DNA of 64,000 nucleotides from Kiritimatiellia bacterium (GTDB lineage Bacteria; Verrucomicrobiota; Kiritimatiellia; UBA8416; YA12-FULL-48-11), in the NCBI GenBank assembly GCA_028716365.1, contig JAQUPZ010000008.1, positions 124,001 through 188,000 on the forward strand, read 5' to 3'. Shown here one piece after another: positions 4,354 to 59,773 of this stretch. Position numbers and translations under genes: made by a program. Every line of letters begins with the position of its first letter. Within the stretch, counting starts at the first letter, position 1. Under the pieces are notes generated by a model. It had not been told where the DNA came from. It did not search any database and was given only the letters and a program-made list of their open reading frames with translations.

Positions 4354-5616
4354 TCAGGATAATTGACTGACAAGCCTGCGCGCCTGTTCCGCGAGTAACT
4401 CAAATCCGCCACACTTTGGCCGTAGCTTGTTATAGAAGAACATTGACCATAAGACTTCGTAGGCGCCCTCCTGATAGGCCTGTGCAGTAGCCACATAACC
4501 AATCATTCCGTTCGCGCAACCAATCACATGCAGGGGATATTTGCAGCCTTTGCCGGCAAGTTCGCCGAACTTGGAGAAAATCTCGGCATTGACAGCCAGC
4601 AATACGACCGGGCCCAATCGTATAGCGAATAGTTCCACATTGGCATGGGGAGCCTTACCGGCCATGACCTGCTGGGTCATCGTACGACGCCATGTTTCAA
4701 CGGCAAGTGCGTATTTTTGTCCGAACTCATGATGACCTAGTGGATTGGCAAGAGCATGGTCGGCATACTGGTTAATTTCTTCAGCAGTAGAAGGTTCAAG
4801 AGGCAAGGGCACAATCATTGTAACAACGCTCAGAAGATGTTTTTCGGAACGTTGAAATGACGGTGACGCTGAAAGCAATTCCGCCAGAATACTGTGTGCC
4901 ACGTTTCCTCCCCACTGGCGCATCTGTTCGGGTGAAACGCCCACGGACGGTGGATCCACGTTGCCGCATGCCCCGGAACAAACCAACGCTATTGGATTAC
5001 CCGGCAATGACTGTGATAATACTCTGGCTGTTTCGCCCGGCCAATCCGCGCTGATTTCCGTTCCGCATAAACATACGGCATGCATACCATAATTGATGAG
5101 TACCGCCTTGAATGTTCCATCCGGCCTCCGCCATCCAGCAGCTAATACACCCGTAGCGGTGTGCGCCGAAGAAAAACCACGCCGGTCAACGCCAAGATTG
5201 CAGGTTCCTTGTACGACGACGAGATTACATTGTTCGGGAACAGCCAGAGCTGATTTTGCCGCCTGGAAAAACTGTTCCTTTACCCAGTTTACATAGGCAG
5301 GATTATACTCGCCGCAGCCGGTCAGGTGAACAGTTGGCGGTCCGCTATGCGTATGCGTGGTTGAAATCAAGACGCGCGTTCCAGGGATGTTCAGCTCACG
5401 TTGAATATGGTTTCGAAGTTCGACAACAAAAGGTTCTTCAAGGGCCAGCAGATCGGCGTGTAACCATAAAAGACGCTCTGATTTGTCCTCCAAATACAGC
5501 GCTCGTACAGCCAGCGGATCCAATACACCGGTTGACGGTTGCGGTCGAACGGCGAAGCCAACCAGGTCAATTCCCGGTTGTGGTGTAATATCAACTTGAG
5601 CAGTTCCTACCAGCAT
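4354..5616 (-). CDS. Neutral/alkaline ceramidase N-terminal-domain family protein
   Basis: A 420-residue protein that begins directly with GTAQVDITPQPG, the typical N-terminus of the neutral non-lysosomal ceramidase domain (PF04734). The zinc-site motifs are present: STTHTHSGP around residues 85-93 and NYGMHAVC around 175-182. The central SGACGNVDPP also matches the family. It lacks a signal peptide and is shorter than full ceramidases, because the C-terminal immunoglobulin-like domain is missing. Environmental homologues of this single-domain type occur in sugar-use loci, and their real substrate is unclear. Here it is the last gene of the minus-strand glycan operon, 67 bp after the GH84-like gene. 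Amide hydrolysis of a glycolipid or amino-sugar derivative is a reasonable but unproved guess. Confidence 0.8.
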   Translation of the reverse strand: MLVGTAQVDITPQPGIDLVGFAVRPQPSTGVLDPLAVRALYLEDKSERLLWLHADLLALEEPFVVELRNHIQRELNIPGTRVLISTTHTHSGPPTVHLTGCGEYNPAYVNWVKEQFFQAAKSALAVPEQCNLVVVQGTCNLGVDRRGFSSAHTATGVLAAGWRRPDGTFKAVLINYGMHAVCLCGTEISADWPGETARVLSQSLPGNPIALVCSGACGNVDPPSVGVSPEQMRQWGGNVAHSILAELLSASPSFQRSEKHLLSVVTMIVPLPLEPSTAEEINQYADHALANPLGHHEFGQKYALAVETWRRTMTQQVMAGKAPHANVELFAIRLGPVVLLAVNAEIFSKFGELAGKGCKYPLHVIGCANGMIGYVATAQAYQEGAYEVLWSMFFYNKLRPKCGGFELLAEQARRLVSQLS

Positions 5617-57184: not shown

Positions 57185-58375
57185 ATGAACATGAAAAACA
57201 AAAAAGAAATAAGCCGTCGTAAATTCATAACCAACTCAACATTGGGAAGTATCGGGACTTTAGGTGCAATAGGATTTTTAACATCCTGCAAGGGACTGCA
57301 TACAAAAACCGGCAAATTAACAGATGGCAAAGGAATTAAAGCCGGTATCACGCTGCGACCCTATAAACTGCTTTGCGCAGTGTGCGCAATCGGGGAGGGG
57401 AATACAGAAGAGGACGATGATAAGATCAAAGCCATCAGGAAAAATCCCGACATTCCGGTCACACTGCGATGTAATGCAGGTGACATATTCGCGTATCAGG
57501 ATCCTGATCATGCTGATGACACTCATGGAAGCGCTGAATTCAACAGGAAAAGAGACCTGGAGATACTGCAGAGGATTGACCTGCCTCCGGGTGTTACATT
57601 GCCGGCGCGAATTATTTTACATCGCATTTGGGACAGGATAACGAGTACATCCGGAATCTGTAACTGCGAAGAGACAGCGAAGGATTCGTGCAAAGGTTGT
57701 CCCAGGGCAAAGGCCGGATTATACGAAAAAGGTCGTGAAATAAGCTTATTGTATGCAGTTCCGGGATGGAACACCCAGCTCACCTTTTCCGAATCCGACC
57801 TGCAAAAAGCAAAAAATGCTATTATCGTGCCTCGCACGAAGGAAGAGAGAGCTGCCGAAAAACGCAAATCACTTGAGGCCATGTATCATGCAGAAGCGAT
57901 ACCTGTCAGGCCGCATATCCTTCTATGTGCCATATGTCAATATGGAGATGGCTCAAGACCTCCATTTGAAACGGACAACCTGCCCGAGATGATACAGTTC
58001 ATCTTAAAGAACCCAAAAGCCAGGATTAAGATGGCTGAAGCAGCTGACTGGATGATGTGCGCGCCCTGTCCCAGCTTGAATAAATACAATGCATGCGTGA
58101 ATGTGAAAGGTCATGCCGGGTTGACGAGTCAACTTCGTGATGTGAGGGTGCTTCATGTACTCGACCTTCGTTATGGAGATGTGATCAATGCGCAGGAGTT
58201 ATACAAAAAGATTCTGCAGCACATCCCGAGTTCGGCTCCAATCTGCGGTTCCATCTCAAAAGGGGTTCAGGAACCATCAGTATGGGATGACGAATGCGGA
58301 CATCACTCTGAAAGTTTAAAATCATTCGTTAAAGGGCGGGAACTGCTGATAAAGGAGTTCGGATTCAACATATAG
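57185..58375 (+). CDS. Cys-rich Tat lipoprotein with duplicated domain, unknown function
   Basis: I place the start at the ATG giving MNMKNKKEISRRKFITN, because the longer frame (TTG at 57077) would bury the twin-arginine signal. The signal ends in a lipobox (IGFLTSC), so it is a Tat-exported lipoprotein of about 396 residues. Two homologous halves are visible. The first begins LRPYKLLCAVCAIGEGN and the second VRPHILLCAICQYGDGS; both then run through an IRKNPD/ILKNPK helix to an IL/VL-R-DL segment. Between them lies a CNCEETAKDSCKGCPRAKAG cluster. In all about twelve Cys suggest metal or iron-sulfur binding. I do not know the family; the function is open. Confidence 0.7.
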   Translation: MNMKNKKEISRRKFITNSTLGSIGTLGAIGFLTSCKGLHTKTGKLTDGKGIKAGITLRPYKLLCAVCAIGEGNTEEDDDKIKAIRKNPDIPVTLRCNAGDIFAYQDPDHADDTHGSAEFNRKRDLEILQRIDLPPGVTLPARIILHRIWDRITSTSGICNCEETAKDSCKGCPRAKAGLYEKGREISLLYAVPGWNTQLTFSESDLQKAKNAIIVPRTKEERAAEKRKSLEAMYHAEAIPVRPHILLCAICQYGDGSRPPFETDNLPEMIQFILKNPKARIKMAEAADWMMCAPCPSLNKYNACVNVKGHAGLTSQLRDVRVLHVLDLRYGDVINAQELYKKILQHIPSSAPICGSISKGVQEPSVWDDECGHHSESLKSFVKGRELLIKEFGFNI

Positions 58376-58450
58376 AATATTTTTAAAAGTAATTTTTTGT
58401 CAACAATCCGGACGTAATTACCGAACGGTCAAAACGAGGAGGAAATGGTT

Positions 58451-59773
58451 ATGATTCCTGACAGCAATATTCATGTTCCAAGGCGGCAGTTCCTCAAACA
58501 AATGGCGACGGTTACCGGAGCCATTACTCTTCCACAAATCATCTCATCGTCGGTTCTGGGAAAGGATGAGAAGACAGCGCCGAGCAATAAAATCACCCTC
58601 GGGGTCATAGGTGTTGGTGGTCGGGGTAATGTGTTGATGAAGAATTATCTCAAATTCGATGATGTAACCGTATTGGCCGTATGCGATCCCCGTGGCGACC
58701 GGCTAAAGAAAGCCAAGGGAGACGTGGATCTTGAGTATAATAATAAAGATTGTACCATGTATGGGGATTACCGCGAACTGCTGGCCCGGAAAGATATTGA
58801 TGCGGTGGTTATCGCCACGCAGGACCACTGGCATGCGCTGATTGCGACGGCGGCGGCGCAGGCGGGCAAGGATATGTACTGCGAAAAACCGCTGGGAGTG
58901 TCCGTCCAGGAATGTCAGATTATCCGTGATACCATTCGCAAACATAAACGAATCTTCCAGACGGGCACGCATTCACGTTCTTTTCAAAACTGCTGGCAGG
59001 CCTGTGAACTGGTCCGAAATGGTTACATCGGCAAAGTCCATACTGTGCAAGTGGCTGCCCAGGGACCGCACTTTAAACCAAGCTACAAGGGTTCCCTGGA
59101 CCCACAACCTGTCCCTGAAGGTTTCGACTGGGATATGTGGCTGGGACCAGCGCCAAAGAAACCCTACAATCCGGGCCGCGTGGCTTACCCGGATTTTTAC
59201 CTGATCTGGGACTACTGTGTCGGTTTCATCTGTAACTGGGGCGTACACTGTCTGGATATTGCTCTGTGGGGCTGCCCGGAACTCGCCGGCGGAACGTTTG
59301 ACCTTGAATGCAAGGCTACCTATCGCAACGAAGGCTTTTCGGACAATGTGCTCGGTTGGAACAGTACGTTCACATATGCGAGCGGCTTGAAGATGATTTT
59401 CACGGATGAAGATCAACAGAAATTTGGCATCCGGTTCATTGGTGACAAGGGGTGGATTCATACTAGTTGGGGTGGGGGTGGTATCTGGGCAGAACCGGAA
59501 TCTCTGCTAAAAATTAAAATCAAACCCGAGGAACAGAAACTACAGCTATCCAGGAACCATGGCGATAATTTCATTCAGAGTGTCCGCAGCCGTCGAGATC
59601 CGGTTGCGAACGTCGAGGCGGGGCACAGGGCTTCCTGCTTTGGCATGATCGCGGACATTTCTGCCCGTCTGCAACGGAAGTTGAAGTGGGATCCGAACAA
59701 GGAACAGTTCATTGGTGACGATGAAGCCAATGCCAGGCTGATCCGGCCCATGCGTGAACCGTGGAAGCTGTAA
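58451..59773 (+). CDS. Tat-exported Gfo/Idh/MocA family oxidoreductase
   Basis: The second ATG is preferred, eight bases after AGGAGG; the first ATG, two bases after it, is too close. The product begins MIPDSNIHVPRRQFLKQMAT with the twin-arginine signal. GVIGVGGRGNVLMKN is the Rossmann dinucleotide motif, DMYCEKPLGVSVQEC carries the family EKP Lys, and WDMWLGPAPKKPYNPGR is the usual C-terminal-domain loop. About 440 residues long, it should use bound NAD(P) to oxidise a sugar or sugar acid in the periplasm. It is the second exported Gfo/Idh/MocA protein in the window and shares about the same domain order with that at 26986. Confidence 0.88.
   Translation: MIPDSNIHVPRRQFLKQMATVTGAITLPQIISSSVLGKDEKTAPSNKITLGVIGVGGRGNVLMKNYLKFDDVTVLAVCDPRGDRLKKAKGDVDLEYNNKDCTMYGDYRELLARKDIDAVVIATQDHWHALIATAAAQAGKDMYCEKPLGVSVQECQIIRDTIRKHKRIFQTGTHSRSFQNCWQACELVRNGYIGKVHTVQVAAQGPHFKPSYKGSLDPQPVPEGFDWDMWLGPAPKKPYNPGRVAYPDFYLIWDYCVGFICNWGVHCLDIALWGCPELAGGTFDLECKATYRNEGFSDNVLGWNSTFTYASGLKMIFTDEDQQKFGIRFIGDKGWIHTSWGGGGIWAEPESLLKIKIKPEEQKLQLSRNHGDNFIQSVRSRRDPVANVEAGHRASCFGMIADISARLQRKLKWDPNKEQFIGDDEANARLIRPMREPWKL

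What the first reader, a model, noticed from the sequence alone, without database searches (positions are those of the whole stretch)
57185..58375. Tat lipoprotein with duplicated CAxC domain and a central Cys cluster
Two halves open with LLCAVCAIGEG and LLCAICQYGDG and follow the same pattern; about twelve Cys in total, including CNCEETAKDSCKGCP. Tat export suggests a cofactor loaded in the cytoplasm, such as an iron-sulfur centre. I know no described family.
Basis: partly seen in the sequence, partly recalled or inferred. Interest (0 to 1): 0.55.

Follow-up and report, generated by a model that had tools for sequence, protein, structure and literature searches.

The report
Exported tandem DUF1284 cysteine protein
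This gene makes a cysteine-rich protein built from two copies of a little-studied domain (DUF1284); its cysteines are kept almost unchanged in distant relatives, which points to bound metal, perhaps iron-sulfur, but its function is not known.

Summary
In detail: an intact 396-aa ORF (57185-58375, +) has a Tat/lipobox leader and two homologous halves. It is not without a family. The C-half is Pfam DUF1284 (34.3 bits, cut-off 25), and profile comparison shows the N-half is a second, diverged DUF1284 (E 2e-18). Thirty-five further tandem proteins were collected from the own genome and class, Bacteroidota and another unnamed phylum. Across the 36, seven Cys are invariant and five more are kept in 32-35. 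The conserved Cys fall into a four-Cys set in each half (64/67/159/172 and 248/251/354/371), plus CxxC...C with His244 in the C-half alone. Joint loss of C64 and C172, and a similar pattern in single-domain DUF1284 proteins, suggest real ligand sets. The Tat leader is a changeable trait: 28 of 36 lack it by pattern, and it is common in this window, so it is weak evidence for a cofactor. Best reading: a metal-binding, possibly iron-sulfur, redox accessory. Metal, partner and reaction are unshown. Neighbouring URO-D methyltransferase-type genes are a statistical lead only.

The parts
57185..58375 (+). tandem DUF1284 protein, 396 aa
   Evidence: ORF and translation; Pfam PF06935 on the C-half
57212..57229 (+). 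Tat motif SRRKFI (residues 10-15)
   Evidence: sequence; the motif itself is recalled knowledge
57278..57289 (+). lipobox-like LTSC, Cys35 the predicted lipidated residue
   Evidence: sequence; LTSC and ATSC at the same place in the Bacteroidota relatives L038 and L039; lipobox rule recalled
57344..57754 (+). N-half, diverged DUF1284 (residues 54-190), with conserved Cys 64, 67, 96, 159, 172
   Evidence: hhalign against single-domain DUF1284 profile E 2.3e-18 and against C-half E 2e-37; conservation
57374..57385 (+). CAVC, Cys64 and Cys67 (N-half four-Cys set)
   Evidence: C64 34 of 36, C67 36 of 36
57470..57472 (+). Cys96, N-half only
   Evidence: 33 of 36
57659..57700 (+). central cluster: Cys159 and Cys172 conserved, Cys161 and Cys169 clade-specific
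   Evidence: 36, 34, 3 and 3 of 36; C172 lost together with C64 in L026b and L033
57896..58360 (+). C-half, recognisable DUF1284 (residues 238-392)
   Evidence: Pfam 34.3 bits against cut-off 25; hhalign E 1.4e-25
57914..57937 (+). HILLCAIC: His244, Cys248, Cys251
   Evidence: 34, 36 and 32 of 36
58058..58096 (+). CAPC...C core: Cys292, Cys295, Cys304
   Evidence: 36 of 36 each; a CxxC..C pattern in 30 of 30 single-domain DUF1284 proteins
58244..58297 (+). Cys354 ... Trp367 ... Cys371 (C-half four-Cys set)
   Evidence: 35, 36 and 36 of 36
58445..59773 (+). next gene downstream, RRxF-leader Gfo/Idh/MocA oxidoreductase; possible co-transcription, 69-base gap
   Evidence: Pfam; other, non-orthologous Gfo genes also adjoin the tandem gene in L039, L042 and L029

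Best explanation
A tandem DUF1284 metalloprotein. Each half holds a four-Cys set (CxxC in the first helix, then IC and a later Cys) suited to one iron-sulfur cluster or similar metal. The C-half also keeps the ancestral DUF1284 site (His plus CxxC...C). It most likely works as a redox or metal accessory to other enzymes rather than as a stand-alone catalyst. In this genome it carries a Tat leader and lipobox, so it would be folded with its metal in the cytoplasm, exported and lipid-anchored, to serve exported catabolic enzymes such as the Gfo/Idh/MocA gene downstream. Shown: the tandem domain, the Cys conservation, the joint loss, the leader sequence. Inferred: metal binding, cluster type, redox role, partners, actual export.
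For: C-half is DUF1284; N-half is a second one. Of 36 tandem proteins, C67, C159, C248, C292, C295, C304 and C371 are invariant, C354 is kept in 35, C64 and C172 in 34, C96 in 33, C251 in 32. C64 and C172 are lost together in one sister pair. In 30 single-domain proteins the first-helix Cys and a C-terminal CxxCxW..C motif go together: 20 have both by the pattern, 7 have neither, 3 have the first only; of those 3, two (L129, L135) show the motif with wider spacing and one (L157) runs off its contig. Single-domain proteins have no Cys at the C67 position (0 of 26 with a readable motif), whereas all 36 tandem proteins do, and these lack the middle Cys of CxxCxW at the +3 place in 34 of 36 N-halves and in 35 of 35 C-halves with C354 (a Cys at +2 occurs in 3 N-halves and 2 C-halves). 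I read this as a swapped ligand in a kept set. The same Cys are kept in relatives without a leader, presumably cytoplasmic, which argues against disulfides as their purpose.
Against: No metal, spectrum or structure. C251 is lost in 4 of 36 while C248 and C371 stay, so the C-half set is not strict; the joint loss of C64 and C172 is one event. L127, a single-domain protein, lacks the first-helix Cys yet keeps CxxC and a further Cys in its tail. Zinc fits the sequence equally well. AlphaFold models are middling (full length without leader pLDDT 64, pTM 0.47; C-half 75.6, 0.75), the core Cys loop is below 50, and I had no coordinates to measure Cys distances. Gene neighbours differ from locus to locus. 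The four adjoining Gfo proteins are about 23-29% identical over the parts that align, so not one conserved pair.
Confidence: 0.5

Rival explanations
1. Zinc-stabilised structural or scaffold protein: the Cys sets bind Zn, there is no redox role, and the two halves form a rigid platform for partner enzymes.
For: CxxC...C plus His and four-Cys sets suit Zn (recalled knowledge); the ligand residues outlast the variation in the rest of the protein; neighbours are varied.
Against: Export by Tat would be an unusual route for a plain Zn protein, but Tat-type leaders are common here, so this is weak.
Confidence: 0.25
2. Accessory of the URO-D family (corrinoid or methyl-transfer) enzymes that are expanded in many of these genomes, for example a reductive activator or methyl-acceptor partner.
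For: A URO-D gene is the next called gene at 5 of 31 merged loci (L026, L108, L113, L115, L121; a sixth, L109, adjoins only a fragment copy); expected 0.56, P 2.0e-4 for 5, not corrected for having looked at all neighbour families. URO-D copies: median 40 in 11 tandem-bearing class genomes against 6.5 in 50 genomes without it, P 1.2e-5, or 0.003 with one value per positive family (counts). One search scored only 33 candidates in four of the 50, so those counts are lower bounds; with candidate totals instead, P is 3.7e-5 and 0.006. A B12-binding protein adjoins the tandem gene in L122.
Against: 4 of those 5 pairs are convergent (L026, L108, L113, L121), so not co-transcribed. The adjoining URO-D proteins are about 22-32% identical where they align, so not orthologous. 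G389 has the tandem gene and 1 URO-D; G287 has 5, G288 10, G291 1, and 5 of the 50 genomes without it have 22 or more. RACo-type activators are present in all 29 genomes tested, with or without the tandem gene, so there is no vacancy to fill. No URO-D was found within 5 called genes of the window copy.
Confidence: 0.15
3. Exported disulfide-bonded protein with no metal; the Cys are structural.
For: The window protein carries a lipoprotein-type leader; the joint loss of C64 and C172 also fits a disulfide pair.
Against: 28 of 36 tandem proteins lack the leader by the pattern used (L024 has a damaged version of it) and yet keep most of the same Cys; single-domain relatives keep CxxC..C in 30 of 30.
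Confidence: 0.1

Closest known systems
Pfam PF06935 DUF1284, single-domain form
   Same: C-half over the curated cut-off; N-half related by profile; shared start (R-x-H..C in the C-half) and CxxC...C core
   Different: Two domains in one chain; N-half has lost the core CxxC...C and the His; a CxxC in the first helix of both halves; middle Cys of CxxCxW mostly absent; Tat leader in some
Bacterial ferredoxins and other Fer4 proteins (recalled as comparison)
   Same: Four-Cys sets twice over, possible electron-carrier role
   Different: No Fer4 match in Pfam; spacing is not the ferredoxin CxxCxxCxxxC (motif recalled)
RACo-type corrinoid activators (PF14574)
   Same: Would share the setting of corrinoid methyl transfer, if the URO-D link is real
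   Different: No match in this protein; RACo genes are present separately in all 29 genomes searched

Membership tests
Pfam PF06935 DUF1284 | whole-protein score at or above curated cut-off (25 bits) | tested here: met
   34.3 bits, residues 262-353 of the 395-aa query; C-half alone 30 bits
Pfam PF06935 DUF1284 | the N-half also belongs | tested here: met
   N-half alone gives no Pfam hit at E up to 10, but profile-profile with 14 single-domain DUF1284 proteins gives E 2.3e-18, probability 99
Pfam PF06935 DUF1284 | CxxC...C core seen in all single-domain members sampled | tested here: met
   C292, C295, C304 in the C-half, 36 of 36; 30 of 30 singles; absent from the N-half
Pfam PF06935 DUF1284 | biochemical function | not testable with these tools
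   family of unknown function; no paper with DUF1284, COG3543 or PF06935 in the held library
Ferredoxin (Fer4) | Pfam Fer4 match | tested here: not met
   only DUF1284 matched at E up to 1
RACo-type activator | RACo C-terminal domain PF14574 | tested here: not met
   only DUF1284 matched at E up to 1
Tat-exported lipoprotein | twin-arginine motif, hydrophobic stretch, lipobox Cys | tested here: met
   SRRKFI, then a hydrophobic stretch, then LTSC, read by eye from the sequence; no signal-peptide predictor was run
Tat-exported lipoprotein | actual export and lipidation | not testable with these tools
   needs an experiment
Known fold in the PDB | structural match | tested here: inconclusive
   no Foldseek match at E 0.001 or better for either model; best VIA Z 2.1 and 2.6

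The most novel reading that the evidence does not exclude
Tandem DUF1284 proteins are an undescribed class of iron-sulfur redox partner, with two Cys4 clusters and one His-Cys3 site, that serves URO-D/corrinoid methyl transfer or Gfo-type oxidation; in some lineages the module was moved outside the cell by repeated gain of a Tat leader.
Probability: 0.15. Interest if true: 0.7.

Novelty: new variant of a known kind. Interest (0 to 1): 0.45.

Why it matters
DUF1284 has no known function, and no clear solved relative was found by sequence. The Cys sets defined here turn an orphan domain into a testable metal-site hypothesis, and the tandem form separates the ligand sets by natural loss. If it is an iron-sulfur partner of URO-D or Gfo enzymes in uncultured bacteria, it would help explain how those enzymes get electrons. 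If it only binds zinc, it is a modest annotation gain.

Tried and rejected
Central cluster as a conserved unit: rejected, C161 and C169 are Cys in 3 of 36. Tat as proof of a cofactor: rejected. Stand-in for RACo activators: not supported, all 29 genomes searched have RACo. A conserved operon with the downstream Gfo gene: not supported, adjoining Gfo proteins are non-orthologous; whether Gfo adjacency exceeds chance was not tested. Mobile-element cargo: no match to the window protein in plasmids or phages; viral contigs gave no relative for the profile A1 or for one single-domain protein, L131. Solved relatives by sequence: none for P0001; only marginal hits to ETV6-fusion chains (E 0.015-0.023) and a designed barrel (E 0.19). 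Known fold: none listed for either model; this does not show that the fold is new. BioY as a general partner of DUF1284: it adjoins 7 of the 14 single-domain loci taken (two checked by Pfam), but a BioY profile hit none of the 17 loci (16 single-domain and the tandem-type L156; at most about 1.5 kb seen on each side).

Paper searches: DUF1284, COG3543 and PF06935 gave 0 papers; one search gave 0; one search gave 1 and one search gave 4 that looked irrelevant from the listing. No paper was opened. The library holds open-licence PMC only.

Counting notes: the 22-row set was widened to 36. Left out of the 36: frame-broken, cut or partial copies (L041/L126, L042, L110, L114, L125, the second piece in L109) and L119 as a near-copy of L117. 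For the adjacency test, orthologous neighbourhoods were merged to 31 loci: L031 with L028; L032 and L037 with L030; L040, L041/L126, L117/L119 and L120 with L118; L124 with L123. None of the merged copies has a URO-D as next gene. The merging, the mechanical gene calls (100 aa or more) and the density of 950 genes per Mb are my choices. The 50 genomes were picked by me from the list, not at random. One search scored at most 5 candidates per genome, so copy numbers there are lower bounds (5 of the 6 own-genome copies were listed).

Full report
The ORF is real. The window encodes a 396-aa protein at 57185-58375 on the + strand. It has a Tat-type leader (SRRKFI), a lipobox-like LTSC and 15 Cys. 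The two halves align with each other far above shuffled controls (Smith-Waterman 97 against a maximum of 56 in 1000 shuffles).

It has a family. Pfam places the C-half in DUF1284 above the curated cut-off. The N-half alone finds nothing in Pfam, but its profile matches single-domain DUF1284 proteins (E 2.3e-18) and the C-half (E 2e-37). NCBIfam has no match.

Distribution. The own genome holds six tandem copies and two single-domain ones. A profile search finds matches in 13 of 345 class genomes; in 11 of these there is at least one tandem copy, counting one cut and frame-broken copy in G323 (G031 and G089 gave only single-domain or partial matches). In the phylum of G290, 17 of 35 genomes match, some only by single-domain proteins. 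In the order of Mariniphaga (G288) 2 of 247 match: G288 itself and one genome with a single-domain protein. The nearest relatives found are Bacteroidota: a Bacteroidales MAG (72%) and Mariniphaga sediminis (70-71%). The tree groups the window with these two at 100/99 support, so transfer between phyla is likely, direction unknown.

Cysteines. In 36 tandem proteins, C67, C159, C248, C292, C295, C304, C371 and W367 are invariant; C354 is kept in 35, C64, C172 and H244 in 34, C96 in 33, C251 in 32. C161 and C169 are Cys only in the window and the two Bacteroidota proteins. Homology of the halves pairs 64 with 248, 67 with 251, 159 with 354 and 172 with 371. This leaves four Cys per half, plus C292, C295, C304 and H244 in the C-half, plus C96 in the N-half.

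Joint loss. L026b and L033, sister proteins, have lost both C64 and C172; this is one event, not two. In 30 single-domain proteins the first-helix Cys goes with the C-terminal CxxCxW..C motif: 20 have both and 7 neither; 3 scored as exceptions are two with wider spacing and one cut by its contig end, and among the 7 one (L127) keeps CxxC and a further Cys without the Trp. Single-domain proteins lack a Cys at the C67 position (0 of 26 readable), while all 36 tandem proteins have it and mostly lack the middle Cys of the C-terminal motif. I read this as a swapped ligand in a kept four-ligand set. C251 is lost in 4 of 36 with no matching loss, which goes against a strict four-ligand set in the C-half.

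Tat. By a simple RRxF pattern 8 of 36 tandem proteins have the leader, and the label needs at least 5 changes on the tree. The pattern occurs near the start of 7 of 36 window ORFs of 150 aa or more and nowhere later in those 36 proteins. Export is therefore a lineage habit and says little about a cofactor.

Neighbours. In the window, an M55-type peptidase gene lies upstream and a Gfo/Idh/MocA gene downstream, followed by a GH106-like gene and a sugar-isomerase-like TIM barrel. Gfo genes adjoin the tandem gene in four loci (window, L039, L042, L029) but are not orthologous, and I did not test this against their density. URO-D genes are the next called gene at 5 of 31 merged loci against 0.56 expected, mostly convergent and not orthologous. 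URO-D copy number is higher in tandem-bearing genomes (median 40 in 11 genomes against 6.5 in 50). Four of the 50 counts are lower bounds because of a scoring cap; using candidate totals the difference stays (P 3.7e-5; 0.006 with one value per positive family). Kinship confounds this, G389 (1 copy) is a clear exception, and 5 of the 50 have 22 copies or more without the tandem gene.

Structure. AlphaFold from 7 rows gave pLDDT 64 and pTM 0.47; the C-half from 11 rows gave 75.6 and 0.75. The core Cys loop is among the least confident parts. No solved fold stands out, and no coordinates were available for Cys distances.

Verdict. The protein is a tandem architecture of a known but unexplained domain. 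Metal binding is likely, iron-sulfur plausible, role and partner open. No paper on the domain was found in the held library. I recall that the Pfam entry itself suggests possible iron-sulfur binding; this comes from no call.

Noticed in passing
L129, L130, L131, L132, L133, L135, L138 (single-domain DUF1284 loci): A BioY biotin-transporter gene lies directly beside DUF1284 in 7 of the 14 single-domain loci taken (Pfam check of two), but in none of the 17 loci, where only about 1.5 kb of flank was seen. A possible biotin link for canonical DUF1284.
   Followed up: partly
L028 7999-9000 and L031 2657-3883: The tandem DUF1284 gene sits between an RseP-like and an IspG-like gene in an isoprenoid/lipid cluster in two related genomes (gene names from recall).
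   Followed up: no
L123 7725-14001: Several QueG-like genes (name from recall) lie beside the tandem DUF1284 gene.
   Followed up: no
L127 7504-8100: A single-domain DUF1284 of the own genome also has a Tat-type leader, with Asp in place of the first-helix Cys.
   Followed up: partly
L021 6130-7746 and L025 9143-10585: Two of the six own-genome tandem copies abut genes that are both related to window 4354-5616 (24-25% identity); they look like neutral ceramidases (recalled).
   Followed up: no
L041 7971-9043 (same locus as L126): The tandem gene is split over two reading frames in this assembly.
   Followed up: no
genomes G003, G050, G060, G061, G072, G325, G771: URO-D family genes are expanded to 40-50 copies per genome.
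   Followed up: partly
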